NCBI RefSeq assembly: GCF_030499515.1
Contig: NZ_JASTWJ010000001.1
Coordinates: 3,700,001 to 3,764,000, forward strand
Source: Streptomyces sp. DT2A-34
Lineage (GTDB): Bacteria > Actinomycetota > Actinomycetes > Streptomycetales > Streptomycetaceae
Direction: 5' to 3'
DNA: 64,000 nt
The position numbers and the translations under genes are program-made. The notes under the pieces are model-generated. The model did not search any database. It had not been told where the DNA came from and saw nothing but the letters and a program-made list of their open reading frames with translations. Below, one piece after another: positions 4,466 to 32,651 of the stretch. Within the stretch, counting starts at the first letter, position 1. Each line of letters starts with the position of its first letter.

Positions 4466-6763
4466 GTGAAAACCCTGCTCATCGACAATTACGACTCTTA
4501 CACGTACAACCTGTTCCAGCTGATCGCCGAGGTCAATGGCGAGGAGCCGGTGGTGGTCCTCAACGACGCCCCCGCGGACGAGGTCCCGGATCTTGGCGCG
4601 TTCGACAACGTGATGGTGTCACCGGGCCCCGGACATCCGGGTGCGGTGCGGGACTTCGGCATCAGCGCCAGGGTGCTCGCCGCGTCCCCGGTTCCCGTGC
4701 TCGGCGTCTGTCTGGGCCACCAGGGCATCGCTCTCGGGGAGGGGGGCCACGTGGTGCCCGCCCCGGAGCCCCGGCACGGGCATCTCTCCGTGATCCGGCA
4801 TGACGAACGGGACCTGTTCCAGGGGCTGCCGCAGAACTTCACCGCGGTCCGATATCACTCGCTGGCCGTGCGCGAGCCGCTGCCCGAGAACCTGGAGGCC
4901 ACCGCCTGGGCCGAGGACGGCGTCCTGATGGGGCTGCGGCACCGCAGCCGGCCCCTGTGGGGGGTGCAGTTCCACCCGGAGTCCGTCCTCACCGACTACG
5001 GCCACCGCATGCTGGTGAACTTCCGCAACCTCACGGCCGAGCGGGCCCGCAAGCTCCGTACGAAGAACACCGCGATCCCCGCACCGGACGTGGCCGTCCC
5101 CCGCCCCGCAGCCACCGCACCCCACGCCGGCGCCCCCCGCCGGGCCGACACCCCGGCCGACACGGCCGCCCCCTCCGCCAAGGCCGCCCCGGCCACCGTG
5201 ACCATCCCCCGCCCCCGCCGCCCCGGCCGTCCCGCCTACCGTCTGCACACCCGCCGCATCACCACCGCGGTCGACACGGAGGCCGCCTTCACGCGGATGT
5301 ACGCCGGCTCTCCGCGCGCGTTCTGGCTGGACAGTTCGCTGGTCGAGGAGGGCCGGTCCCGCTTCTCGTTCTTCGGTGACGACAGCGGCCCGCTCGCCGA
5401 GTTCGTGCGCTACGACGTGGACAGCGGCCGATGCGAGATCGAGCGGGCGGGGCGGCCCCCGCGCAAGGTCAGGGCGAGCGTCTTCGACTATCTCAAGCGT
5501 CAGCTGACGAACCGCCATGTCGACGCCACCGGGCTGCCCTTCGACTTCACCGGCGGCTATGTCGGCTACTTCGGCTACGAGATGAAGGCCGACTGCGGCT
5601 CGCCGAACCGTCACCGGTCCGAAATCCCGGACTCCTGCTGGCTGTTCGCCGACCGGCTGATCGCGGTGGACCACGAGGCGGGCTTCACCTACGCCGTCTG
5701 CCTGGCGGAGGACACCCCGCAGGCCGCCCGGGAGGCCGCCGACTGGCTGGAGAGCGCGTTGGCGCAGCTCACCTGCGTGGCCTCGGGGCAGCCATCCCTG
5801 CCCGTGCCGGGCGAGGCCGATCCCGGCGCCGCCGAGCCGTGGCTGGTGCGCGACCGGGCGACGTATCTCGCGGACATCGACGCCTGCCGACGGGAGCTGC
5901 GGGCGGGCACCAGTTACGAGATCTGTCTGACCAACGCCGCCCGGTTACCCGCCCCGCCCGACGCCTATGACTTCTACCGGACGCTGCGCCGCGTCAACCC
6001 GGCGCCGTACGCGGCGTTCCTGAGGTTCGGGGACCTCGACGTGGCCGGCTCCTCCCCCGAGCGTTTCCTGCGGGTCGGCCGGGACGGTGTCGCCGAGGCC
6101 CGGCCCATCAAGGGCACCGCGCCCCGCGGCTCCGGGCCGGAGGAGGACGCCCGGCTCAGGGACGCGCTGGCGGCGGACGCCAAGACGCGTGCCGAGAACC
6201 TGATGATCGTCGACCTGCTCCGCAACGACCTGGGCCGGGTGTGCCGGACCGGGACGGTGCGCGTGTCCCGGCTCATGGCCACGGAGACGTACGCCACCGT
6301 GCACCAGCTCGTCTCCACCGTCGAGGGCCGGCTGCGCACCGGCACGGACGTGGTGGACTGCGTCCGCGCCTGCTTCCCCGGCGGTTCGATGACCGGCGCG
6401 CCGAAGCTGCGCACCATGGAGATCATCGACTCCCTGGAGACCGAGGCCCGCGGCGTGTACTCCGGCGCCCTCGGCTACCTGGGCTGCAGCGGCGGCGCTG
6501 ACCTCAGCATCGTCATCCGTACGGCCGTGCTCGCCGACGGTCTGATGCAGTTGGGCGCGGGCGGCGCCATCGTCCTCGACTCCGATCCGGTTGCCGAGTA
6601 CGACGAGATGCTGCTGAAGACGGCGGCCCCGATGCGGGCCCTGCACCAGTACACCGCTGACCGGATACGGGAACAGCGGGAGCGAGCCGCGGTGCGGACG
6701 GCCACCGCGCTCCCGGTGGGCACGCGTCCGCAGCGGCCCTCCGCCGAGGAGCCCGCCCGATGA
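4466..6763 (+). CDS. pabAB: Fused aminodeoxychorismate synthase (PabA-PabB), contains a TTA codon
   Basis: 765 residues. An N-terminal glutamine amidotransferase is followed, after a Pro/Ala linker (about 200-255), by chorismate-binding PabB; chorismate plus glutamine gives 4-amino-4-deoxychorismate. Amidotransferase: DNYDSYTYNL, nucleophile Cys82 in GVCLGHQ, and His/Glu in QFHPES near 170. PabB: PIKGTAPRG with Lys near 549, which marks aminodeoxychorismate rather than anthranilate synthases (PIAGT), and FPGGSMTGAPKLRTMEIID. The start is GTG 4466 with a GAGGGGGG ribosome site. Leu494 is encoded by TTA (5945-5947), so translation should need the bldA tRNA. Such fusions usually belong to secondary metabolism. 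It overlaps the next gene by 4 bases (ATGA). Confidence 0.93.
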   Translation: MKTLLIDNYDSYTYNLFQLIAEVNGEEPVVVLNDAPADEVPDLGAFDNVMVSPGPGHPGAVRDFGISARVLAASPVPVLGVCLGHQGIALGEGGHVVPAPEPRHGHLSVIRHDERDLFQGLPQNFTAVRYHSLAVREPLPENLEATAWAEDGVLMGLRHRSRPLWGVQFHPESVLTDYGHRMLVNFRNLTAERARKLRTKNTAIPAPDVAVPRPAATAPHAGAPRRADTPADTAAPSAKAAPATVTIPRPRRPGRPAYRLHTRRITTAVDTEAAFTRMYAGSPRAFWLDSSLVEEGRSRFSFFGDDSGPLAEFVRYDVDSGRCEIERAGRPPRKVRASVFDYLKRQLTNRHVDATGLPFDFTGGYVGYFGYEMKADCGSPNRHRSEIPDSCWLFADRLIAVDHEAGFTYAVCLAEDTPQAAREAADWLESALAQLTCVASGQPSLPVPGEADPGAAEPWLVRDRATYLADIDACRRELRAGTSYEICLTNAARLPAPPDAYDFYRTLRRVNPAPYAAFLRFGDLDVAGSSPERFLRVGRDGVAEARPIKGTAPRGSGPEEDARLRDALAADAKTRAENLMIVDLLRNDLGRVCRTGTVRVSRLMATETYATVHQLVSTVEGRLRTGTDVVDCVRACFPGGSMTGAPKLRTMEIIDSLETEARGVYSGALGYLGCSGGADLSIVIRTAVLADGLMQLGAGGAIVLDSDPVAEYDEMLLKTAAPMRALHQYTADRIREQRERAAVRTATALPVGTRPQRPSAEEPAR

Positions 6764-8316
6764 CGACCTCACAGTCCACGACCCCGCAGTCCCCCCTGCC
6801 CCCGGCCGAAGCCCGCGCCCCCGGGAATCTCGCCGCCCATCTCGCCGCGCTCGCCGAGCGGCGCGGGTGGACCGACCGGGCCGCCCTCCACCAGGGCCAC
6901 CGGACCTGGACCCATGGCGAGGTGCACGACCTCGCGGCCCGCGCGGCGACCGTGCTCGCCGGCCACGGCGTACGCCCCGGCGACCGGGTGCTGCTCGCGC
7001 TGCCCGACTCCGTCGCCTGGGTGACGGCGTTCCTCGCCACCGCCCGCCTCGGTGCCGTCGCCGTGCTGGTCAACCCGGAACTCCCCGCCGCCGACCACGC
7101 GTTCATGGCCGAGGACACCGGGGCGGTGCTGTGCGTGACGGGACCGGGACCGGAGGACCGGGACGGGGACGGGGACCGGTTCGGTGGCCTGGCCCGCCTC
7201 GGCGCCGACCAGCTCATGGCACTCATCCCCGCCGCCGAGCCCGCCGCCGCCCGACCGGTCCACGCGCACACCCCCCTGTACGTCCAGTACACCTCCGGCA
7301 CCACGGGCCGCCCCAAGGGCGTCGTGCACCGCCACGGCGACCCGAAGACGTACCACGACCTCATCGGCCGGCGCGTGCTGCGGATCACCCAGGACGACGT
7401 GACCCTGTCGGTGTCGAAGCTGTACTTCGCCTACGGCTTCGGCAACGCCTTCGTCTTCCCGCTGTTCTCCGGTTCGTCCGCCGTGCTGGTGGGCCGGCGT
7501 CCGACCCCAGCCGCCGTCGACGAGCTCGTCGCCCGGTACCGGGTGACCGTGCTGTACTCCGTGCCGTCGGCGTACGCCGCCCTGGTGGCCGACCGGGGCA
7601 GCGGGCACGAGGCCTGCTTCGCCTCGGTGCGGGCCGCGGTGACCGCCGGGGAGGGCATGCCGGAGGGGCTGGCGCGGCAGGTCACCGAGCTGCTCGGCGC
7701 GCCGGTGCTGGAGCAGATCGGCTCCACCGAGGCCGGTCACGCCTTCTGCGCCAACAGCTTCCAGCACAACCACCCGGGCACGGTCGGCCGTCCCGTCCCC
7801 GGCTTCGAGGTGGAGCTGCGTGACCGTGACGGGCACCCGGTGCCGGACGGCACGGAGGGCGAGATGTGGGTGCGCGGGCCGACGGTGACGCCCGGCTATC
7901 TGAACCGTCCCGAGGAGACGGCCCGCACCCTGGTGGGCGGCTGGCTGGCCACCCGCGACCGGGCGCGCCGCGAACCGGACGGCACCTACCGGCACCTGGG
8001 CCGCGCCGACGACATGGAGATGGTCGGCGGCATCACCGTCTCCCCGCTGGAGGTGGAGGCCGTGCTGCGGCGGCATCCGGCGGTGAAGGAAGTCGCGGTC
8101 GCCGCCCTCACCGACGCGCGCGGGGTGAGCCGGCTGCGCGCCTTCGTCGTGCCCGTACCGCCGGTGCGGGCCGGGCTGGAGGACGAACTCCTCGGCCTGG
8201 CGCATGAGCGGCTCGCGGCCTTCAAGGTCCCCCGAAGCGCCAGCTTCGTGGCTTCCCTGCCCCACACCGCAACCGGAAAGCTCCGCCGCCACCTGGTCCG
8301 CCAGGGCGCCTGGTGA
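6760..8316 (+). CDS. Benzoate-CoA ligase-like adenylating enzyme
   Basis: 518-residue ANL-superfamily enzyme: carboxylate plus ATP gives an acyl-adenylate, then a thioester. The P-loop YTSGTTGRPKG lies near residues 180-190. It is followed by the KLYFAYGFGNAFVFPL stretch typical of benzoate/4-hydroxybenzoate-CoA ligases and the QIGSTEAGHAF adenylate motif. The C-terminal lid has ATGKLRRHLV with the catalytic Lys. Coupling by ATGA to pabAB makes p-aminobenzoate or a hydroxylated form the likely substrate. Whether the acceptor is CoA or a carrier protein cannot be told; no carrier gene lies in the cluster. Confidence 0.85.
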   Translation: MTTSQSTTPQSPLPPAEARAPGNLAAHLAALAERRGWTDRAALHQGHRTWTHGEVHDLAARAATVLAGHGVRPGDRVLLALPDSVAWVTAFLATARLGAVAVLVNPELPAADHAFMAEDTGAVLCVTGPGPEDRDGDGDRFGGLARLGADQLMALIPAAEPAAARPVHAHTPLYVQYTSGTTGRPKGVVHRHGDPKTYHDLIGRRVLRITQDDVTLSVSKLYFAYGFGNAFVFPLFSGSSAVLVGRRPTPAAVDELVARYRVTVLYSVPSAYAALVADRGSGHEACFASVRAAVTAGEGMPEGLARQVTELLGAPVLEQIGSTEAGHAFCANSFQHNHPGTVGRPVPGFEVELRDRDGHPVPDGTEGEMWVRGPTVTPGYLNRPEETARTLVGGWLATRDRARREPDGTYRHLGRADDMEMVGGITVSPLEVEAVLRRHPAVKEVAVAALTDARGVSRLRAFVVPVPPVRAGLEDELLGLAHERLAAFKVPRSASFVASLPHTATGKLRRHLVRQGAW

Positions 8317-8348
8317 ACCCCATGGAAAGGCACGGAAAGGAACGCCCC

Positions 8349-9938
8349 ATGCCACAGCAGCACCCCCTGCTCGCCGACCGCGGCTTCTATCTGGGACCGG
8401 TGTTCCGGCGGGCGGCCGACCGGCACGGAGCCGTCCGCGTCACCCTGGACCGGCCCCTGGACATCCGCCCCGACCTCGGGGTCGACCTCAGCTATCCGGT
8501 ACTGGCCGATGTCGTCGAGGAGCTGGCCGGCCGCCTCTGGGAGGCCGGGGTACGGCCCTCGGAGCAGGTGGCCGTCCACAAGACGGACAACGTCGACATC
8601 GTCCTGCTGACCTGTGCCGTCTCCCGTGTCGGCGCCGTCCCCGTGCTGTTGTCGCCCGCCCTGGCCGGTCCGGTGGTCGCGCAGCTCCTCGGCCGGCTCC
8701 GGCGGCCCTGGCTGATCACCGACAGAGCCAAGCTGGACGGCCCGTTGAAGGACGCCGGGGTGTCCGGGCTCGTCCGGCGGACGCTCTGCGTGGACGGCGT
8801 GGACGACGCGCCCGGAGCCGAGCCCTTGGAGAAGTACGCCGGCGCCGAGCCCGCCGCGCCCGTACGGCTGCACCCCCGCGAGCCGTCCCTGATCACCCAC
8901 AGCTCGGGCACCACCGGCGTCCCCAAGCTCGCCGTGCATTGCGCCAACACCATGTGGAACCGCCTCGTACCGCAGAAGGCGATGGGCCGGCCCACCCGCG
9001 GGGAGACCGCGGCGCTGCACATGTCCTTCGTGCACTCGCGCTTCTACCACCTGCTCGGCGTCCTGCTGCACTTCGGCAGCCCGCTCGTGCTGATCACCGA
9101 CCCGGAACCGGCCGCGGTGGCCCCGCTGCTGGTCCGCCATCGTCCCGGCATCGTCGAGACCCACCCCAACACGTTCGTCCTGTGGGAGGAGTTGGCCGAC
9201 GCACCCGGCGCGCCCCTGTCCCGGGTCCGGTCGTACGGCTCCACATTCGACGCGATCCATCCGCGCACCGTACGGCGGCTGCTGGACGCGTCGCGGCGCC
9301 GTACTCCGTGGCTGATCCAGTTGTACGGGCAGAGCGAGACGGGCCCCGTGGCGTTCCAGTGGTTCACGCGGCGCAGTGCCGCCCGCGCGGACGGCCGGCG
9401 GGTCGGGATCGGCATCCCCGGCTTCACCCGCGTCCGCGTCACCGGCCCCGACGGCAGGCGCGTGGCGCCCGGCACGCCGGGCCGGATCGAGGCCCGCACC
9501 CGGGGCCGCATCCTCACCTATCTCGGCATGCGGGACCGCTACGACCGCCAGCTCACCGACGGCTGGTGGGAGATGGGCGACATGGGCTACCAGAGCCGCC
9601 TGGGCGCCCTGTACCTGATCGACCGGGAGATCGACCGGATCGACTCGGTGCACAGCAATCTGGAGGTCGAGGACATGCTGATGTCCCGCCTGGAGGAACT
9701 GCGCGAGGTCGTCATCGTGCCCGGCGCGGACCGCGAGCCGGTGCCGGTGGTGTGTGTCCGGGGCGAGCAGCCACTGGACCCGGAGCGCTGGCGGGAGGCC
9801 ACCGCCGACCTGCCCGCGATGGCCGAGCCACGGCAGTGGCGGTTCGCGGACCTGCCCATGACGGCCACGTGGAAGGTGAAGCGGGTGGAGATCACCCGCA
9901 TGCTGGCCGAGACCGAGCCCGAAGGCGCCCCCGCGTGA
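8349..9938 (+). CDS. Second AMP-forming acid ligase of the cluster, with altered lid motifs
   Basis: 529-residue ANL-type enzyme. The phosphate loop THSSGTTGVPK and QLYGQSETGPVAF are conserved. The hinge and lid are unusual: GDMGYQSRLGALYLIDREIDRIDS lacks the usual Asp after the Gly, and ATWKVKR has Trp in place of Gly before Lys. It may form an amide or ester, or load a different acid from the first ligase. The start is chosen at ATG 8349 because GGAAAGGA (8334-8341) sits 7 bases before it. In-frame GTG 8313 overlaps the upstream stop (GTGA) and ATG 8322 is another option. Confidence 0.75.
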   Translation: MPQQHPLLADRGFYLGPVFRRAADRHGAVRVTLDRPLDIRPDLGVDLSYPVLADVVEELAGRLWEAGVRPSEQVAVHKTDNVDIVLLTCAVSRVGAVPVLLSPALAGPVVAQLLGRLRRPWLITDRAKLDGPLKDAGVSGLVRRTLCVDGVDDAPGAEPLEKYAGAEPAAPVRLHPREPSLITHSSGTTGVPKLAVHCANTMWNRLVPQKAMGRPTRGETAALHMSFVHSRFYHLLGVLLHFGSPLVLITDPEPAAVAPLLVRHRPGIVETHPNTFVLWEELADAPGAPLSRVRSYGSTFDAIHPRTVRRLLDASRRRTPWLIQLYGQSETGPVAFQWFTRRSAARADGRRVGIGIPGFTRVRVTGPDGRRVAPGTPGRIEARTRGRILTYLGMRDRYDRQLTDGWWEMGDMGYQSRLGALYLIDREIDRIDSVHSNLEVEDMLMSRLEELREVVIVPGADREPVPVVCVRGEQPLDPERWREATADLPAMAEPRQWRFADLPMTATWKVKRVEITRMLAETEPEGAPA

Positions 9939-23151: not shown

Positions 23152-23180
23152 AAGTGTGGAGCCAGGAAGTGTGGAGCCAG
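23151..23180. repeat. 15-base tandem duplication at the MarR-GNAT start
   Basis: GAAGTGTGGAGCCAG occurs twice in a row (23151-23165, 23166-23180). Each copy contains a GTG in the same frame, so the duplication creates an extra possible start codon. Confidence 0.85.
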
Positions 23181-24103
23181 TGAGGAATCCAGTGAGCGAC
23201 ACGGAGCCGGTCCCGTCGCAGGATGTGACCGCCCTGCGCCGCTTCAACCGCTACTTCACGCGCCGCATCGGCGTCCTGGACGACCACTACCTCGGCCAGG
23301 ACCGCCCGCTCGGCGAGGCCCGGCTGCTGTTCGAGATCTCCGAGTCCCGGGCCGGCGCTTCCCTGCGTGAGCTCAGGAGCCGGCTCGGCCTGGACGCCGG
23401 GTACCTGAGCCGGATGGCCAAGGCACTGGAGTCGCAGGGCATGGTCCGGCTGAGTGCGCACCCCCAGGACAACCGGCTGCGGATGATCGAGCTGACCCCG
23501 GCCGGACGGGTGGAGGTGAAGGAGCAGAACCGGCGCGCGTACGCGGCTGCCGCCGGGCTCCTCGAAGGCCTCAGCGCACCGCAACGCGCCGAACTGACCG
23601 AGGCGATGGCCACCGCACAGCGCCTGCTGCGCCTCGCCGGCATCACCGTCGACCTCGTCGACGGCGCCGCACCGGACGCCCGGGCCTGCCTGGACACCTA
23701 CGCCGACGACATCGACGAGCGGTTCCCCGAAGGGTTCGACAAGGACTCCCTCGTCCGGCCGCAGGAGGTGTCCGGCGACGCCGGCGCGTTCTTCGTGGCC
23801 TACGAGGAGGGCCGCCCCGTGGGCTGCGGGGCACTACGCCGCCTGGAGCCCGGCGTCGGCGAGATCCGCCACCTCTGGGTGCACCCCGGCGCCCGCCGCC
23901 TCGGCCTCGCCCGCCGACTCCTGGAATCCCTCGAACAGGAGGCCGCCGCCCGGCACTTGACCGTCGTACGCCTCGACACGCATGCCGCGCTCACCGAGGC
24001 GCAGGCGATGTACCGGGCGTGCGGATACACGGACATCCCGGCCTACGACGACAACGTCTACGCCAGCCACTGGTTCGAGAAGCGGCTGTCGCCGAGCGCC
24101 TGA
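23156..24103 (+). CDS. MarR regulator fused to GNAT acetyltransferase
   Basis: Up to 315 residues. A MarR winged-helix domain (about 20-150: RRFNRYFTRRIGVLDDHYLG, LRELRSRLGLDAGYLSRMAKALESQGMV, DNRLRMIELT wing) is joined to a GNAT domain (about 165-310: GAFFVAYEEGRPVGCGALRRL, IRHLWVHPGARRLGLARRLLESLE with the acetyl-CoA loop, AQAMYRACGYTDIPAY). Such fusions may couple transcription to acetyl-CoA or to modification of a ligand. Four in-frame GTGs (23156, 23171, 23180, 23192) are possible starts. TGAGGA (23181-23186) before 23192 is the best ribosome site, giving 303 residues. Confidence 0.85.
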   Translation: MEPGSVEPVRNPVSDTEPVPSQDVTALRRFNRYFTRRIGVLDDHYLGQDRPLGEARLLFEISESRAGASLRELRSRLGLDAGYLSRMAKALESQGMVRLSAHPQDNRLRMIELTPAGRVEVKEQNRRAYAAAAGLLEGLSAPQRAELTEAMATAQRLLRLAGITVDLVDGAAPDARACLDTYADDIDERFPEGFDKDSLVRPQEVSGDAGAFFVAYEEGRPVGCGALRRLEPGVGEIRHLWVHPGARRLGLARRLLESLEQEAAARHLTVVRLDTHAALTEAQAMYRACGYTDIPAYDDNVYASHWFEKRLSPSA

Positions 24104-24196
24104 CCGCACTCGGCCGGTCCGCCCCCGCCCCCCTGCGAGGCGATCAGGAGTGGTGAACTCAGTGTCCGATCAGGCGACTTGAGCCACAATATTGTC

Positions 24197-24562
24197 GTGT
24201 CCACCATCTCGGAATCAGAGTTCGACGACGGTACGCCCGTGAGGTTCCTGCTCGCCCCCGCACCCGCGCGGGGCGACGACGACCTCCCCGAAGGCATGGG
24301 CAGAGCCGTCCCCGTCGCCACCGGCGGCCGAGCCGTCGCCAACTTCGCGACCGGTGCCCTGCGCGGCGCTCTGAAGCCACTCGGGCCCCTTCTGCAAGAG
24401 GTGCACGACGCCGTGAAGGACGTACCGGAGCCGCCCAGCGAGCTCAGTGTGACCTTCGGTGTGCAGGTCGGGCAGGACCTCAAGCTCGGGATCGTCGGCG
24501 GCAACGGGCAGGCGCACCTCACCGTCACCGCCAGTTGGAAGCCGGCGGCCGGTCCGGAGTAA
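24197..24562 (+). CDS. Trypsin-co-occurring domain protein (trypco1/CU044_2847-like)
   Basis: 121 residues, no signal peptide. Seen: an N-terminal strand VRFLLAPAP, a helix with GALRGALKPLGPLLQEVHDAVKDV, and the C-terminal strand series ELSVTFGVQVGQDLKLGIVGGNGQAHLTVTASWKP. This matches the small family found next to trypsin-like effector genes in actinomycete conflict systems; it is thought to regulate or tether the protease. It ends 2 bases before the protease start. CACAAT six bases before GTG 24197 and the lack of a ribosome site suggest a leaderless transcript; TTG 24179 is the alternative start. Confidence 0.75.
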   Translation: MSTISESEFDDGTPVRFLLAPAPARGDDDLPEGMGRAVPVATGGRAVANFATGALRGALKPLGPLLQEVHDAVKDVPEPPSELSVTFGVQVGQDLKLGIVGGNGQAHLTVTASWKPAAGPE

Positions 24563-24564
24563 CC

Positions 24565-26727
24565 GTGGGGTGGTTCAAGGAGATCAGTGCGGCACCCGGC
24601 GAGAAGTGGCGGCCGAGTGCCGTGTCCGTGCGCCGGACAGCCGACGGCAAGACGGCGGGCGCGGCGGTCGTGCTCGGCGCCGACACGGTGCTGACCTGCG
24701 CGCATGTCGTCAACGACGCCCTGGGCAGAGCGCAGTTCGACCCCCGGCCGCCCGGCCTGGAGGAACTGTTCGTCGAAATGAACGTCGAAGTGAAGGGGGC
24801 GCGGAAGACCGAGCGGTACCCCGCGAGGGTGGCGCACTGGATCCCCCCGCGCACCCGCGCCGGGCAGGCCGTGGGGGACGGCGACCTGGAGTGGCTCGGC
24901 GATCTCGCGGTCCTGCGGATCGACGCTCCGCCACGCGGAGTGCCCGCGCCCGACCGTCGCATGGACATGGTGCCCGGCCAGCGGGTGCGCGCCTGGCACG
25001 GCAGCGGGCACAACGCGACGTTCGCCGATCTGAAGGTCGCCGCCCTCGACGACGGGATCGGCTATCTCGACGGCAAGAGCACGGGCATGGCGGTCGGCCA
25101 CGGCTACAGCGGCGGCCCGCTGTGGTGCGTGGACGACGAGACCGTCGTGGGGCTCGTCGTGGCGCACTTCATGCCGGCGTGCGATGTCCCGCCCAGCCCG
25201 CAGGACATGATCCGGCGCAGCTGGGGCATCCCCTGGCAGCGGGTCGAGGCCGAGCTGCGGAACGCGGGGGTGGCACTGGACGACGAGGACGCCGACGCGG
25301 GGCAGTCCTACGACCCCGGCGATCCCCCGTTCGTCAAACTCGTGGAGACGATCCGGTACGCCCTGCCGACGTCGTCGTACTCCTTCGGCGACACCGCCCG
25401 CAAGCTGGCGGTCGAGTGCGGCCGCGAGCCGGGCAGCGCCGTGGCCCCGCCGTCGGTGGAGGAGTTCGCGGGCTTCCTGGTCAGCCATCCGCGGGCGGTG
25501 GCGGCACTCACCCAGATCCTGCGGCCCACGAATCCCGCGGCGGCCGACCGGGTCCTGGCCGCGGGGCAGTTCTTCGAGTCCGCGCTGCTGCTCTCGCCGC
25601 GCGAACACCAGCAACTGCACCAGCTCTTGCGCAAGGTGGACCGGCCGGTGCTCGGGCGGCTCCCCGAGGTGGTGCGCGAGGCCGCGAAGCGGGTCGACGT
25701 CCGGTCCGACGGGGACACGCCGGACGCCCAGCTGCTCAGCCTGGAGAGGCTGGCGGGCGACGGCCACTCCGACGGCGGCGGGCCCCGAGTGCCGGCGCTG
25801 CTGCGGGTCGTCGAGTACGTCGCCGTGCTGTGCCCGGCACCGCAGAAGGGGGTGCTGCGGCTGTGGTCGGACAGCGTGGCGGTGCGGCTCGGCATCCCCG
25901 CCGCGGCGCTGCGGGAGCGGCGTTCGGACGCCGAGGACTGGGCCCGCATGGTGCGCGCGAGGACCGGGCGGGTGCGGGTCCTGGTCCAGGTGACCCAGGC
26001 CGCCCGGGGCCGGCACCGGCTGCGCATCTGGTGCGACGAGGGCTCCGGGCCCCGGCAGGTGTCGGCCGACAGCTCCGCCGCGTACTCCGCGTCCGAGGCG
26101 GCGCGCGAACTGCTGCGCGTCCTGGAGTCCCTCACGCCCGCGGCCGCGGACGGCGGGCGGCCCCTGGTGGAGGTGCTCGTGGACAGCGACAACCTGAACC
26201 TGCCGGTCGACGAATGGGCGGCCCAGGCACCCGGCGAGATCATCCCGGGCATGCTGGGCGCGGAGTTCCCGCTGGTCGTGCACTGTCCGGAACTCCTGCG
26301 CCGGCACGAGCGTTTCCTTCCCGACTGGCGGGAGCGGTGGAGACAGCTCGACTCCGGTCAGACGCTGGTCGTGTCGGATCCGGGCCAGGACCCGCACCAG
26401 GTGTACTACGAACTGATGGGCCGGCTCGACACGGTCCGGGTCTCCGTCGACGTGCCGGCGGGCCCGCGCGACCGGATCGTTCAGATCTGCCTCGCCGTGG
26501 GCATACCGGTGGTGGTGTGGGACCGCGGCCGGGACACGCCCTCGCACGCCGCCAAGCACATGGCGGAGCTCGCCACCCGTGAACTGCCCGACGGGGTGCG
26601 GGTCTACCGGGCCAACGCCCGGGGCACCCGCGCCCCCGAGTTCCCCGGCCGCCCGGTCCTCGCCTGGGCGGACGCCGACCGCACGGTGCCCCGACTGCAC
26701 CTGACCGAGCCACAGGAGAGCGCATGA
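24565..26727 (+). CDS. Trypsin-like protease with VMAP C-terminal domain
   Basis: 720 residues, no signal peptide, so cytoplasmic. Residues 1-230 are a chymotrypsin-fold protease: His47 in LTCAHVVND, Asp113 in LGDLAVLRID, Ser182 in GYSGGP, all three catalytic residues present. A small helical domain follows (about 250-330), then a long alpha/beta region (about 390-700: VPALLRVVEYVAVLCPAP, VLVQVTQAARGRHRLRIWCDE, PLVEVLVDSDNLNLPVDEW, VVVWDRGRD) that fits the vWA-MoxR-associated C-terminal domain. As the effector of a VMAP system it would cut proteins when released by the MoxR/vWA pair. Starts GTG 24565; overlaps moxR by ATGA. Confidence 0.82.
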   Translation: MGWFKEISAAPGEKWRPSAVSVRRTADGKTAGAAVVLGADTVLTCAHVVNDALGRAQFDPRPPGLEELFVEMNVEVKGARKTERYPARVAHWIPPRTRAGQAVGDGDLEWLGDLAVLRIDAPPRGVPAPDRRMDMVPGQRVRAWHGSGHNATFADLKVAALDDGIGYLDGKSTGMAVGHGYSGGPLWCVDDETVVGLVVAHFMPACDVPPSPQDMIRRSWGIPWQRVEAELRNAGVALDDEDADAGQSYDPGDPPFVKLVETIRYALPTSSYSFGDTARKLAVECGREPGSAVAPPSVEEFAGFLVSHPRAVAALTQILRPTNPAAADRVLAAGQFFESALLLSPREHQQLHQLLRKVDRPVLGRLPEVVREAAKRVDVRSDGDTPDAQLLSLERLAGDGHSDGGGPRVPALLRVVEYVAVLCPAPQKGVLRLWSDSVAVRLGIPAAALRERRSDAEDWARMVRARTGRVRVLVQVTQAARGRHRLRIWCDEGSGPRQVSADSSAAYSASEAARELLRVLESLTPAAADGGRPLVEVLVDSDNLNLPVDEWAAQAPGEIIPGMLGAEFPLVVHCPELLRRHERFLPDWRERWRQLDSGQTLVVSDPGQDPHQVYYELMGRLDTVRVSVDVPAGPRDRIVQICLAVGIPVVVWDRGRDTPSHAAKHMAELATRELPDGVRVYRANARGTRAPEFPGRPVLAWADADRTVPRLHLTEPQESA

Positions 26728-27674
26728 CGTCCCCTTCCGAGGCCGACTGGCGCCTCTTCCGCGGCGACGGTCTCCCGCGCCATGTGACGCTGCCCCCGGC
26801 CCCGCCATGGCGCCGTTTCAGCCCGACGCCGTCCGTCCGCCCCGAACTGCCCTATCTGATCCAGCCGGAGCATGCCGACGTCGTCAACGCCGCCCTGCAT
26901 CTGCGCCGCCCGCTGCTGGTCACCGGTCCGGCCGGCACCGGCAAGTCGTCGCTCGCCCGGGCCGTCGCGCACGAACTGCGGCTGGGCGAGCTGCTGCGCT
27001 GGTCCATCAACAGCCGGTCGACCGTACGGGAGGCGCTGTACCAGTACGACGCGATCGGCCGGCTGCGCGAGACGACCCTCAGCCGCGACCGGGGCGAACG
27101 CGAGCCGTCGATCGGGACGTTCATCCGGCTCGGCCCGCTGGGCACGGCCCTGGTGCCGCAGCCGACGCCGCGTGCGCTGCTCATCGACGAGATGGACAAG
27201 GGCGACGTCGACCTGCCCAACGACCTGCTCACCGTTTTCGAGGAGGGCTACTTCGACATCCCGGAACTGACCCGGCTCCCCGAGGACATGGCGGACGTGG
27301 AGGTGCAGACCGCCGACCATCGCGGCACGGTGACGGTGCATCAGGGGCGGGTCCAGTGCGCCGAGTTCCCGGTCGTCGTCATCACCAGCAACGGCGAGCG
27401 CGAGTTCCCGCCCGCCTTCCTGCGCCGCTGCGTCCGCCTCGCCCTGCCCATACCGGACGAGGCCCGGCTGCGTGCCATCGTCACCGCACACCTGGGCGAG
27501 GAGGCCCTGCGCGACGCGGACGACCTGATCGAGACGTTCCTGCGTCGCCGCGCCCCCGGCGAACTGGCCACGGACCAGCTGCTCAACGCCGTGTTCCTGC
27601 GCAACGGCGGGGTGAACCTCAACGCGGAAGAGCTGCTGGACGCCGTACTGCACCAGCTCACCGGGGCGCTGTGA
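26724..27674 (+). CDS. MoxR-type AAA+ ATPase of the VMAP cassette
   Basis: 316 residues. Walker A GPAGTGKSSLA (about 67-77), Walker B LLIDEMDKGDVDLPNDLL (about 153-170), sensor-1 VVITSNGEREFP and an arginine-containing FLRRCVRLALPIPD. These are classic MoxR features; MoxR ATPases act as chaperone-like remodelers with vWA partners. Starts ATG 26724 inside the protease stop and ends inside the start of the SAV_2336 gene (GTGA), so all three should be made in fixed ratio. In this setting it should use ATP hydrolysis to control assembly or release of the protease effector. Confidence 0.9.
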   Translation: MTSPSEADWRLFRGDGLPRHVTLPPAPPWRRFSPTPSVRPELPYLIQPEHADVVNAALHLRRPLLVTGPAGTGKSSLARAVAHELRLGELLRWSINSRSTVREALYQYDAIGRLRETTLSRDRGEREPSIGTFIRLGPLGTALVPQPTPRALLIDEMDKGDVDLPNDLLTVFEEGYFDIPELTRLPEDMADVEVQTADHRGTVTVHQGRVQCAEFPVVVITSNGEREFPPAFLRRCVRLALPIPDEARLRAIVTAHLGEEALRDADDLIETFLRRRAPGELATDQLLNAVFLRNGGVNLNAEELLDAVLHQLTGAL

Positions 27675-30600
27675 CCGAGGCCGGCGGGGGCGGGCGGCTC
27701 GGCGAGCTGTTACGGGTGCTGACGGCTTCCGGGCACGAGCTGGACGCCGATCAGGTGCTCGACGTGCTGTGGCTGGCCCGGCGGATGCCCGGCGGACCGG
27801 AGGCGCCCCTCGCGCGCCTCACGCGCACGGCACCGGCGCCGCCCGCGGAGCCGGCCGCGACCGAGCCGGACGAGGCCGGCCCGGAGCACCCCGCGAAGGC
27901 ACCCCGGCCCGACGACCCGGACCTGCCCGACCTGACCGCGCACCCGCTGTACTCGGACGCCCGGCAGGAGCCCGAAGCCGCGCCGGTTCCCGAGATACGG
28001 CTGCGCCAGGGCCCCGAGCCGGACAAGGCGCTGCCCGTCCGGGTCCCCGAGGACAAGGCCCTCGCGGGCGAGCTCGAACTGGGCCGCGCACTACGGCCGT
28101 TGCGCCGCCGCCTGGCCAGCCCGCACCGCCTGGAGATCGACGAGGAGCGCACCGCCGCCGAACTCGCCGAGACCCGGCTGCCCGACGTGGTGCAGCGGCC
28201 CGTGCAGGAGCGCTGGCTCCATCTGGTCCTGCTCGTCGACGACGGCCTGTCGATGCTGCTGTGGCACCGCCTCGCCGCCGAACTGCGCACCCTGCTCGAA
28301 CGCCTGGGCGCCTTCGCCACCACCCGCGTCCTCGGCCTCGACACCCGCGGCGCCGACGAACCCCGTCTGCACACCCGCCCGTTCCGGCCCGACAGCCCGC
28401 CCGTACCGCTGAGCACGGTCGGCGACCCCTCGGGCCGCACCCTGGTCCTCGTCGTCAGCGACGGCATGGGCGCCGCCTGGCGCAGTGGTGCCCTGCACGG
28501 CCTGCTGTCCACCTGGGCCTCCCGCGGCCCCACCGCCCTGCTGCACACCCTGCCGCCCGACCTGTGGGAAGGCTCCGGCATCCACGCGGAACGCTGGCAG
28601 GCCACCACTCGGCGGATCGGCGGCGCCAACACCTCCTGGGAAATCACCGACCCGGTACTGCCGCCCGGCCTGGCCGCCTTCGACGGTGTGCCGGTGCCGG
28701 TCCTGGAGCCGACGGCCGCCGCCCTGCGGAACTGGGCCCACCTGCTCGCCTCGCCGGGCGCCACGGTACAGCTGCCGCTGCTGACCCGGCCGCGCCCGTC
28801 CGGCCCGGCCCCCGCGCCCCGGGGCCCGGGCGGCGCCCAGCACTTCCGGGACGCGGCCACCCCGGAGGCGTACCGGCTCGCGGCGCACCTGGCGGCCGTG
28901 TCACCGCTCACGGTGCCGGTGATGCGGCTCGTCCAGACGGCGGTTCCGTGGCAGGCGCGGACCTCGCATCTCGCGGAGGTCTTCCTCGGCGGGCTCATGC
29001 GGCCGCATCCCGCGCCCGTGCCGGGGCCGCTGCCCGCCAAGCACCAGGTGTTCGACTTCTCCGACACGTCGAGGTCGGTGCTCCTGGACGCCGTCCCGCA
29101 GTCCGAACTCCTCAGGACCAGCCGCACGATCGGGCTCCGTCTCGAACAACTCGCGGGCAACTCCCCCGACTTCCCGGCCTGGCTCGCCCACCCGGACGGC
29201 TCCGCCCGGCTCCCCGGCTCGCAGCGGCCGTTCACGAGCGTGGAGCGGAAGCTGCTGGCACGGTTCGGGGTCTCGTTCGGCTCCGGGGTGCACGGGCTGG
29301 AGCGGGGCCTGCGCGAACAGGGCGCCACGTCGGGTGACGGCTGGGGGCGCCTGACGGACGACGACCCGCGGCAGCTGGGCCCCTACCGGCTGCGCGGCCG
29401 ACGGCGTCTGCGGTGGGTGGTGGAGTACGACGGCGTCGACGAGGTCGACCGCACCAGAGCCATGGTGCGGACCCCACGCTCCGATGTCTCCGCCGACGGT
29501 GCCGAGTTGATCGCGGTGGAGGCGGAGGCGTTGCGCCGGCTGGGCGGACAGTACGCGCCCGCCCTGCTCGGCACCGGACTCGGGCGTCCGCCCCTCTGGG
29601 TGGCATCGGCGCCGATCGAGGACGGCCCCGCACCCGCCGCCCCGCCCCGGCTGGCGGAGCTCTTCAACCAGGCCCACGCGACGGGTGGCGCCCCCTTCGA
29701 CAAGCTCACCGGGCTGCTCGTCGGCTGGCATCTGGCGAGCGCCCTGGCCCTGTGCCATCTCCACGGGATCGTGCCCGCGGACCTCAGTGCCGAGAACATC
29801 TTCGTGCTGCGGCGCTCGGTGGTCCTCGCCGACCTGTCCGACTGCGCCCTGGACGGCCAGTACGCCGGTATGGGCCCGGCGCCGACCCCCGAGGACAATG
29901 TCCGCGCGCTGGGCGACCTGCTGCAGCTGGTCAGCAGCAAGGCGGGCCGGGAACTGCACTGGCGGGTCCCCGGCCATCCCGAGGGCATGCACCTGTGGCA
30001 GGGCGACACCTGGGCGCGGCTGCGGCAGATCGTGCTGCGCTGCCTGGGCCCCGATCCGGCCGAGCGCCCCACGGCGGGCGAGGTCGCGGACGTCCTGGCG
30101 AAGTACATCGCCCAGTCCCGCGCCGAACGCACCGGCACTCCGACGCCCCCGGCCCAGCCCCAGGCCCGCACCCGGCCGTCGTCGCGCGTGCCGCTCGACC
30201 TGCCACCGGCCGCCGCCGTGCCCTCGGACCCCCGCCCCCTCCCCCTGCGCCCGCCCCGCTTCGGCGCCGCCCGCCGCGAACGGCAGGCCCGGCTGGAACG
30301 GCTGCGGACACCGCTGCGCCACGCCCGGCGCATCACCCTGATCGGCGCCTACCACCACGGCGGCCGGGTCTACAGCGGGCGGGCCACCACGACGATGGTG
30401 CTGGGCTCGCTCCTCGCCGCCGTCCGGAGCGAGCCTGTCCTGGCCCTCGACGGAGCGGACGACGAGGGCGCACTCGACGCCTTCCTCACCGACCGGAACC
30501 CGGCCACCGTGCGCGACCTGGCCGACCTGCCGGCCGATCCGACGTACCAGGAGGTCCGCGCCCGCACCACCCGCCTGCCGTCGGGGCTGGAAGTCGCCGC

Positions 30601-31066
30601 GCACCCGGGGGGCCACGTCCCCCCGAACCTCATACACGCCCAGGCCTATCCGCACGTTCTGGCGAGGACCGCGCCCTACTACTCCTTCGTCCTCACCGAC
30701 TGGGCCCCGCAGCGCCTGGACCGGTCGGCCGACACCGTCCTCGATCTGACCGACCGGCTGATCCTGTGCTGCGGCAACTCGGGCTGGTACCTCGACGCCG
30801 CGTGGCGGGTGCTCGACCGGCTGCGCGTCGACGGGCACCGGCGGTTGGCGGACCAGGCGATCGTCGTGGTGACCGAGGTCGAGCAACGTACGGGCCGTGC
30901 CGTGCCGGACGACCTTCCCGCCCGTTTCGACATCGGTGCCGACCAGGTGGTCGCCGTGCCTTACGACCGGTCGCTGTGGTCTCCGGGCTTCCGGCAGTTG
31001 GACCAGTTGCGGGCACCGGCGCTGAACGCCTTTCTGGACCTGGCGGCACTGGTCGTGGCGGGCTGA
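27671..31066 (+). CDS. SAV_2336-type multidomain protein: vWA-like, pseudokinase, MinD-like; TTA at codon 14
   Basis: 1131 residues. Approximate order: N-terminal helical segment (1-70); acidic/Pro linker; vWA-like domain (185-370) with a degraded metal site VDDGLSM in place of DxSxS; helical region (400-560); protein-kinase-like domain (565-830) with VPADLSAENIF and DLSD in place of HRDxKxxN and DFG, so probably not a normal kinase; Pro-rich linker; MinD/ParA-like domain (884-1131) whose P-loop GAYHHGGRVYSGRATTT is altered. This is the SAV_2336 N-terminal-domain family and supplies the vWA partner of MoxR. Leu14 is a TTA codon (27710-27712), so production probably depends on bldA. GTG start overlaps moxR. 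Confidence 0.85.
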   Translation: MTEAGGGGRLGELLRVLTASGHELDADQVLDVLWLARRMPGGPEAPLARLTRTAPAPPAEPAATEPDEAGPEHPAKAPRPDDPDLPDLTAHPLYSDARQEPEAAPVPEIRLRQGPEPDKALPVRVPEDKALAGELELGRALRPLRRRLASPHRLEIDEERTAAELAETRLPDVVQRPVQERWLHLVLLVDDGLSMLLWHRLAAELRTLLERLGAFATTRVLGLDTRGADEPRLHTRPFRPDSPPVPLSTVGDPSGRTLVLVVSDGMGAAWRSGALHGLLSTWASRGPTALLHTLPPDLWEGSGIHAERWQATTRRIGGANTSWEITDPVLPPGLAAFDGVPVPVLEPTAAALRNWAHLLASPGATVQLPLLTRPRPSGPAPAPRGPGGAQHFRDAATPEAYRLAAHLAAVSPLTVPVMRLVQTAVPWQARTSHLAEVFLGGLMRPHPAPVPGPLPAKHQVFDFSDTSRSVLLDAVPQSELLRTSRTIGLRLEQLAGNSPDFPAWLAHPDGSARLPGSQRPFTSVERKLLARFGVSFGSGVHGLERGLREQGATSGDGWGRLTDDDPRQLGPYRLRGRRRLRWVVEYDGVDEVDRTRAMVRTPRSDVSADGAELIAVEAEALRRLGGQYAPALLGTGLGRPPLWVASAPIEDGPAPAAPPRLAELFNQAHATGGAPFDKLTGLLVGWHLASALALCHLHGIVPADLSAENIFVLRRSVVLADLSDCALDGQYAGMGPAPTPEDNVRALGDLLQLVSSKAGRELHWRVPGHPEGMHLWQGDTWARLRQIVLRCLGPDPAERPTAGEVADVLAKYIAQSRAERTGTPTPPAQPQARTRPSSRVPLDLPPAAAVPSDPRPLPLRPPRFGAARRERQARLERLRTPLRHARRITLIGAYHHGGRVYSGRATTTMVLGSLLAAVRSEPVLALDGADDEGALDAFLTDRNPATVRDLADLPADPTYQEVRARTTRLPSGLEVAAHPGGHVPPNLIHAQAYPHVLARTAPYYSFVLTDWAPQRLDRSADTVLDLTDRLILCCGNSGWYLDAAWRVLDRLRVDGHRRLADQAIVVVTEVEQRTGRAVPDDLPARFDIGADQVVAVPYDRSLWSPGFRQLDQLRAPALNAFLDLAALVVAG

Positions 31067-31110
31067 GCAGAGCGGCTGGGCGGGTGGCTGCGGGTGCGGG
31101 TGAACGCACC

Positions 31111-31144
31111 GATCCCCGGGCCGCTGCCGCGCGGCCCGGGGATC
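31111..31144. terminator. Bidirectional terminator between the VMAP cassette and mdh
   Basis: Perfect 14-bp inverted repeat GATCCCCGGGCCGC / GCGGCCCGGGGATC around a 6-base loop, 45 bases after the plus-strand stop and 17 bases after the minus-strand mdh stop. A strong stem serving both convergent units. Confidence 0.85.
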
Positions 31145-31160
31145 ACAGGTGCGGGTCGGC

Positions 31161-32651
<1,491 letters not shown>

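What the first reader, a model, noticed from the sequence alone, without database searches (positions are those of the whole stretch)
24197..31066. VMAP-type conflict cassette: trypco1, trypsin-VMAP protease, MoxR, SAV_2336
Four coupled genes combine a cytosolic trypsin with intact triad, a MoxR ATPase, and a large vWA/pseudokinase/MinD-like protein. Established (computational prediction by the Aravind group, 2020): vWA-MoxR-VMAP ternary systems are NTP-controlled conflict or self/non-self systems in multicellular bacteria. To my knowledge none with this architecture has been tested. A phage-defence or programmed-death role is inference.
Basis: partly seen in the sequence, partly recalled or inferred. 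Interest (0 to 1): 0.75.

Follow-up and report, generated by a model that had tools for sequence, protein, structure and literature searches.

The report
Streptomyces protease-switch conflict gene cassette
Four adjacent Streptomyces genes form a known, apparently still untested kind of molecular alarm, in which an ATP-driven switch seems to control an intact internal protease; this copy is a clean and movable example rather than a new kind of system.

Summary
Window 24197-31066 carries four coupled genes: Trypco1, trypsin-VMAP, MoxR and an SAV_2336/vWA protein. Domain, motif and gene-order tests place them in the VMAP ternary systems predicted by Kaur et al. 2020 (PMC7159879), which also describes this sub-architecture (Trypco beside trypsin; inactive kinase followed by MinD/ParA). 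It is a new member of a known kind.

Added here:
(1) The trypsin domain is HtrA-like in fold, with its triad invariant in 55 of 55 sequences. The positions aligned to the kinase lysine and to the MinD Walker lysine are not lysine in 58 of 58. Only MoxR and the protease look enzymatically competent.
(2) The cassette is accessory. I found it beside mdh in 6 of 150 same-genus genomes, and the same interval is under 250 bp in 5 of 23 genomes measured.
(3) The four genes diverge together, with little relation to mdh.

Five searches of an open-licence library showed no experimental test of a VMAP system. The most likely reading is a latent protease released by a MoxR-vWA switch, with pseudoenzymes as bait or regulators. 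A defence role is inference.

The parts
24197..24562 (+). Trypco1 gene, 121 aa, GTG start
   Evidence: Pfam PF19493 2.4e-19; NF041216 9.7e-15. A -10-like NANAAT hexamer (CACAAT in 7 of 10 loci) lies 6-7 nt before the GTG in the 10 loci printed.
24185..24190 (+). conserved -10-like hexamer CACAAT, candidate leaderless promoter (inference)
   Evidence: Position; NANAAT in 10 of 10 cassette loci printed, four of them at other chromosomal sites. The generic sigma-70 scan found no promoter in 23900-31300.
24565..26727 (+). trypsin-VMAP gene, 720 aa, GTG start; HtrA-like trypsin, VMAP-M0, VMAP-C
26724..27674 (+). MoxR-type AAA+ ATPase, 316 aa
   Evidence: AAA_5; Walker A, Walker B, sensor Asn, arginines and both VMAP-system N-terminal motifs conserved in 20 loci
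27671..31066 (+). SAV_2336-type vWA protein, 1131 aa, GTG start; N-terminal helices, vWA, C-terminal extension, pseudokinase, MinD-like
31111..31144 (.). inverted repeat GATCCCCGG...CCGGGGATC between the vWA gene and convergent mdh
   Evidence: Position. The same arms are in 8 of the 11 mdh-site sequences printed, three of them without the cassette. The T-run terminator scan did not report it.
23156..24103 (+). flanking MarR-GNAT gene, left border of the variable site
   Evidence: MarR and acetyltransferase domains; distance to mdh in other genomes
31161..32150 (-). flanking malate dehydrogenase gene, right border of the variable site
   Evidence: NF003916 575.6 bits, cut-off 271; found in 144 of 150 genomes

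Best explanation
This is a VMAP ternary system: a latent intracellular HtrA-like protease held in a complex with a MoxR-vWA switch. Shown by sequence: the four components, their order and coupling, an invariant catalytic triad and MIDAS-type residues, intact MoxR ATPase motifs, and kinase and MinD-like domains without their catalytic lysines. Inferred: Trypco1 holds or positions the protease. The fast-changing pseudokinase and pseudo-MinD domains on the vWA protein act as bait or sensor for something that attacks real kinases or MinD/ParA proteins. On a signal, MoxR hydrolyses ATP and rearranges the vWA-VMAP complex. The trypsin domain is then switched on allosterically, as in DegS or HtrA2, and cuts the vWA protein and/or cell proteins, arresting or killing the hyphal compartment and limiting spread of an invader.
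For: Family and motif tests. Triad 55 of 55; D190, S194, D264 58 of 58; the position aligned to the kinase beta-3 lysine is Arg in 57 and His in 1 of 58; the position aligned to the MinD Walker A lysine is Arg in 58 of 58 (which residue answers to which motif was judged by eye). HtrA-like fold with Tyr or Phe, never Asp, before the active serine, so the zymogen salt bridge is lacking. The vWA core and C-terminal extension have 25% and 40% invariant columns, the kinase 9% and the MinD domain 7%. Order Trypco1-VMAP-MoxR-vWA in all 21 loci examined, which are the 21 best trypsin-VMAP genes. The four genes co-diverge: rho 0.54-0.81 between genes in 20 loci, 0.44-0.76 when a 21st was added and VMAP was split into domains, against 0.08-0.29 with MDH. 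Accessory presence at a variable site. Relatives carry other C-terminal modules: TIR, NB-ARC and TPR above cut-off, FtsK- and STAND-like hits below it. Two published models, VMAP as sensor (PMC7159879) and vWA-fused domain as sensor (PMC10907252), seen as sections and passages.
Against: No test of any VMAP system appeared in the library searched, so no step is measured. PADLOC has no convincing match. The window is core chromosome rather than a visible defence island: mdh, folD, purH, purN, sucC and sucD are confirmed. VMAP-C matches are in 124 of 150 genomes of the genus, which also suits a physiological role. dN/dS of the VMAP and vWA genes (0.24-0.54) overlaps that of the flanking MarR and XRE genes (0.18-0.44). 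Foldseek's best E-values for the trypsin domain are to other chymotrypsin-fold proteases (granzyme M, Esp, thrombin, SplA), with HtrA1 first at rank 14; the HtrA likeness rests on the second aligner's Z. The other two VMAP loci of the same genome gave no Trypco1 match with this Trypco1 as query. Nothing here fixes the direction of signalling.
Confidence: 0.5

Rival explanations
1. Kaur et al. direction: the VMAP middle region senses the invader, MoxR rearranges the complex, and the trypsin cuts the vWA protein to release its C-terminal pseudoenzymes, which then act as dominant-negative effectors.
For: Proposed in PMC7159879. VMAP-M is less conserved than VMAP-C (12% against 23% invariant columns), and low-conservation linkers flank the kinase.
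Against: In this cassette the released domains have lost their catalytic lysines, so they could act only by binding. The sequence does not separate this from the best explanation.
Confidence: 0.25
2. Regulated proteolysis in development, stress or programmed compartment death of Streptomyces, with no invader involved.
For: VMAP-C matches are in 124 of 150 genomes of the genus, and the window is core chromosome. Kaur et al. report a strong association with multicellular bacteria: 694 of 716 organisms (Table 1).
Against: This cassette was found at the mdh site in only 6 of 150 genomes, the interval is under 250 bp in 5 of 23, and cassette divergence does not follow mdh. A developmental gene would be expected to be kept more stably.
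Confidence: 0.2
3. MoxR-vWA chaperone pair maturing a partner protein (as NorQ/NorD or RavA/ViaA), with the protease as quality control.
For: MoxR-vWA pairs are known chaperones (PMC7159879 section 8; the NorQ/NorD paper was seen only in the listing).
Against: The genes on either side, mdh and MarR-GNAT, do not stay with the cassette, so no client gene is evident; the C-terminal modules change among relatives.
Confidence: 0.04
4. Decayed or inert remnant.
For: Pseudoenzyme domains.
Against: Triad, MIDAS-type and MoxR motifs are invariant, and dN/dS is 0.10-0.54 in the four genes against five mdh-site orthologs.
Confidence: 0.01

Closest known systems
VMAP ternary systems (vWA-MoxR subsystem 1, Kaur et al. 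2020, PMC7159879)
   Same: VMAP to MoxR to vWA gene order, VMAP-C and VMAP-M0 domains, Trypco1 beside trypsin, MoxR N-terminal motifs, inactive kinase followed by a MinD/ParA domain on the vWA protein
   Different: Nothing categorical. The HtrA-like fold of the trypsin domain, the accessory mdh-site insertion and the conserved -10-like element were added here; I did not see them in the sections and passages read.
DGR-linked VMAP systems of Thiohalocapsa (PMC10907252, passages only)
   Same: MoxR, vWA protein, trypsin-VMAP; proposal that the vWA-fused domain is the sensor and the protease the effector
   Different: There the vWA protein carries a C-type lectin domain diversified by a reverse transcriptase; here it carries pseudokinase and MinD-like domains. 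I did not look for a reverse transcriptase in the window.
HtrA/Deg proteases (DegS, HtrA1, DegP)
   Different: Fused to VMAP-M and VMAP-C; taken as cytosolic from its partners (inference; no signal-peptide prediction was run)
MadB_ATPase (NF047784) and MADS defence proteins
   Same: MoxR scores 73.6 bits to MadB; the kinase region has weak hits to MAD6
   Different: Far below the 475-bit cut-off; the MAD6 hit covers about 50 residues of the kinase. Other MADS genes were not searched for, and I found no paper that explains MadB.

Membership tests
VMAP ternary system | VMAP-C domain | tested here: met
   136.9 bits, cut-off 27, full profile 1-226
VMAP ternary system | variable helical VMAP-M region | tested here: met
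   VMAP-M0 31.1 bits, cut-off 25.9; helices only from 256 to 467 in the model
VMAP ternary system | N-terminal peptidase, cyclase or adaptor domain on the VMAP | tested here: met
   Trypsin_2 49.1 bits, cut-off 27.6; triad 55 of 55
VMAP ternary system | Trypco1 or Trypco2 neighbour frequent when trypsin is present | tested here: met
   PF19493 70.2 bits; present in the 21 loci examined
VMAP ternary system | MoxR with N-terminal WxhapG and PsWRxa motifs | tested here: met
   WRLFRG and PPWRRF; W, R, F, G and P, P, W, R, F invariant in 20 of 20
VMAP ternary system | strict order VMAP, MoxR, vWA | tested here: met
   21 of 21 loci examined
VMAP ternary system | vWA domain with two metal-binding aspartates | tested here: inconclusive
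   D190, S194, D264 invariant in 58 of 58 and an alternating strand/helix order, but no Pfam VWA hit in the window protein and only weak VWA_CoxE hits in 3 of 27
VMAP ternary system | [D/E]xxx[D/E]xxx-aromatic motif in the N-terminal extension | tested here: inconclusive
   E23, D27, D31 fit the acidic part, but residue 35 is Leu and Trp is at 34; D31, W34 and L35 invariant in 58
VMAP ternary system | variable, often inactive effector domains after the vWA | tested here: met
   kinase and MinD folds, catalytic lysines lost, other modules in relatives
VMAP ternary system | NTP-controlled conflict or defence function | not testable with these tools
   No experimental report seen
HtrA-type serine protease | HtrA protease fold with catalytic triad | tested here: met
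HtrA-type serine protease | C-terminal PDZ domain | tested here: inconclusive
   No PDZ in Pfam; VMAP-M and VMAP-C follow the protease. Folds outside residues 15-240 were barely tested.
MADS / MadB | score above the NF047784 cut-off | tested here: not met
   73.6 bits against 475

The most novel reading that the evidence does not exclude
The cassette is a bacterial guard-decoy machine. A pseudokinase and a pseudo-MinD domain, both stripped of catalysis, serve as integrated decoys for phage or plasmid proteins that attack host kinases or ParA/MinD proteins. Their engagement is read by the MoxR-vWA switch, which releases a cytosolic HtrA-like protease as executioner: the logic of plant NLR immune receptors with integrated decoys, built from unrelated parts. 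(The plant comparison is recalled, not from a call; Kaur et al. mention decoys in general.)
Probability: 0.25. Interest if true: 0.8.

Novelty: new member of a known kind. Interest (0 to 1): 0.4.

Why it matters
VMAP-C matches are present in most genomes sampled in this genus (124 of 150), yet I saw no experimental test of such a system. This copy is compact, coupled, carried by some relatives and missing from the same interval in others, which gives a natural with/without comparison for asking whether it stops phages or plasmids. Because the only enzymes that look intact are MoxR and the protease, a Ser182 mutant and a MoxR Walker mutant would show directly which part acts.

Tried and rejected
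PADLOC gave only short P-loop and kinase stretches. MadB_ATPase was followed in three searches without finding its meaning. Structure comparison reported trypsin, kinase and MinD folds; VMAP-C, VMAP-M and the vWA region were barely tested because one domain fills the list. The vWA-protein model is moderate (mean pLDDT 67.5, pTM 0.38). A phmmer search of the PDB with MoxR gave only p97-like AAA ATPases over the N-terminal third. Rfam: no match in the window. The generic promoter and terminator scans found nothing.

I looked for contacts between VMAP and vWA-protein domains by partial correlation of distances in 55 VMAP/vWA pairs (the window plus 54 pairs matched by organism or contig length). 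VMAP-M against the kinase N-lobe looked strong (0.46-0.56), but it vanished within clades (-0.19 in 12, 0.11 in 43) and nearest-neighbour agreement showed no excess. It reflects one split in the tree, and I reject it as evidence of contact. A Trypco1-trypsin partial correlation of 0.55 in 21 loci is not counted, because the genes are adjacent and may simply be linked. The trypsin/vWA-core value of 0.46 in the same run was not reproduced in the larger set (trypsin-vWA 0.14-0.21, trypsin-C-terminal extension about 0).

Limits. dN/dS is NG86 in very GC-rich genes: read as ranks. MDH is one conserved gene, so its lack of correlation with the cassette is weak evidence on genome history. In one search only seven candidates per genome were scored and some assemblies are fragmented, so 6 of 150 is a count of finds, not proof of absence elsewhere; lower-ranked VMAP matches were not examined for gene order. 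Gap lengths use the 23 best MarR-GNAT rows (65% identity or more), all with mdh on the same contig; lower rows were not used. Alignment A1 used 58 and A2 55 of 121 available sequences each, thinned by hand; for A1 six short proteins (890-1023 aa) were left out.
Full report
What is there. Four genes on the plus strand follow one another without room between them: Trypco1 (24197-24562), trypsin-VMAP (24565-26727), MoxR (26724-27674) and an SAV_2336-type protein (27671-31066). Pfam and NCBIfam give Trypco1 at 70.2 bits, Trypsin_2 at 49.1, VMAP-M0 at 31.1, VMAP-C at 136.9, AAA_5 at 31.7 and SAV_2336 N-terminal at 382.9, each above its curated cut-off.

Which parts look active. In 55 trypsin-VMAP proteins, His, Asp and Ser of the triad never vary. 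In 58 vWA proteins D190, S194 and D264 (read as the MIDAS site) never vary. The position aligned to the kinase beta-3 lysine is arginine in 57 and histidine in 1 of 58, the HRD aspartate position is Asp in 39 of 58 and the DFG aspartate position in 40 of 58. The position aligned to the Walker A lysine of the MinD-like domain is arginine in 58 of 58 (which residues answer to which motif was judged by eye). MoxR keeps Walker A, Walker B, the sensor asparagine and two arginines in 20 of 20 loci, and both N-terminal motifs that Kaur et al. give as unique to this system. So the MoxR ATPase and the protease look catalytically intact, while the C-terminal modules of the vWA protein look like pseudoenzymes.

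Where it sits. The cassette lies between a MarR-GNAT gene and malate dehydrogenase. In 150 genomes of the genus, full-length VMAP matches place it beside mdh in 6: the window's own genome, G049, G007, G067, G032 and G068. In 23 genomes with a clear MarR-GNAT ortholog and mdh on one contig, the interval runs from 76 bp to 27 kb, and five are under 250 bp. G104, the closest to the window by mdh among the 19 other genomes compared (97.7% DNA identity), has only 968 bp in the interval and carries a homolog with 50% identical VMAP elsewhere. Across 20 loci the cassette genes' distances correlate with one another (rho 0.54-0.81 between genes) but hardly with MDH (0.08-0.29). The four genes therefore seem to travel or be kept as a unit, apart from the genome's history, with the caveat that MDH is a single conserved marker. 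A -10-like hexamer 6-7 bases before the Trypco1 GTG is kept in the 10 loci printed, at this site and others, which suggests that the cassette carries its own promoter (inference).

Evolutionary tempo. Against five mdh-site orthologs, dN/dS is 0.10-0.22 for MoxR, 0.24-0.54 for VMAP, 0.33-0.43 for the vWA protein, 0.15-0.28 for Trypco1 and 0.06-0.16 for mdh; the MarR (three comparisons) and XRE neighbours range 0.18-0.44. The fast evolution of VMAP and vWA described by Kaur et al. is seen relative to mdh and MoxR but is not unique in this neighbourhood. Of seven more distant vWA proteins scanned, including two from the window's own genome, six carry recognisable C-terminal modules and these differ: kinase alone; kinase with TPR and an FtsK-like hit; kinase with TIR, ATPase and TPR; an ATPase-like hit; NB-ARC with TPR; and TIR, ATPase, trypsin and VMAP-C. 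The FtsK-like and several ATPase hits are below their cut-offs, and one protein had no hit.

How it probably works. The most economical reading is a latent HtrA-like protease in a MoxR-vWA controlled complex. Pseudokinase and pseudo-MinD domains serve as bait or regulators, MoxR ATP hydrolysis serves as the switch, and proteolysis is the output. Kaur et al. place sensing in VMAP and output in the released vWA domains. The Thiohalocapsa study places sensing in the vWA protein and output in the VMAP peptidase (PMC10907252, passages). The loss of catalysis in this vWA protein favours the second direction slightly, but nothing here proves it.

What is known. I read sections 8, 9 (part 1 of 2), 14, 29 and 35 (part 1 of 2) of PMC7159879, with its abstract and passages, passages of PMC10907252, PMC10910872 and PMC12839542, and search listings only for the rest, PMC8195603 among them. 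Kaur et al. state the fixed VMAP, MoxR, vWA order, the trypsin-Trypco pairing, that most kinase domains in these systems are catalytically disrupted, and that kinases tend to be coupled to a MinD/ParA or wHTH domain. The window cassette is therefore a textbook member of that class. The five searches for tests of such a system listed no paper whose title or abstract start reports one; experimental papers listed there concern other MoxR-vWA pairs. That library lacks most subscription papers and all preprints.

Verdict. Observation confirmed, interpretation supported, novelty low, testability high.

Noticed in passing
L043 and L044 (genome G007, between MarR-GNAT and the VMAP cassette): A gene block with Tubulin_2 and vWA proteins sits beside the VMAP cassette. 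Across the 150 genomes 23 of 24 with Tubulin_2 also have VMAP-C. Kaur et al. state that actinobacterial tubulin GAP1-N2 systems and VMAP systems are mutually exclusive. GAP1-N2 itself was not detected and DO-GTPase1 only at E 0.24, so the contradiction is provisional.
   Followed up: partly
L078:10470-14855 (own genome, second VMAP locus): One 1461-aa protein fuses an SAV_2336/vWA start to TIR, STAND-like ATPase, a degenerate trypsin (the His position reads Asp by eye, no GxSGG) and VMAP-C. Of 25 relatives listed, 11 carry VMAP-C; some of these relatives keep more of the trypsin motifs. A copy of the system's own VMAP appears to be used as an effector-position module.
   Followed up: partly
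L078:15900-19225: The VMAP gene of that second locus appears split between two reading frames; real decay or sequence error not determined.
   Followed up: no
L077:11060-14914 (own genome, third VMAP locus): vWA protein followed by NB-ARC and TPR repeats. The genome has four VMAP-C matches in all.
   Followed up: partly
L052:2918-6082 (genome G063, same mdh interval): The interval holds a BTAD/NB-ARC/TPR regulator-like protein instead of the cassette, so this site takes up different genes.
   Followed up: partly
window 4466-9938: Three consecutive plus-strand genes of 765, 518 and 541 aa: an aminodeoxychorismate/anthranilate synthase and a benzoate-CoA-ligase-family protein, the third not scanned; possibly a small biosynthetic operon.
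   Followed up: partly
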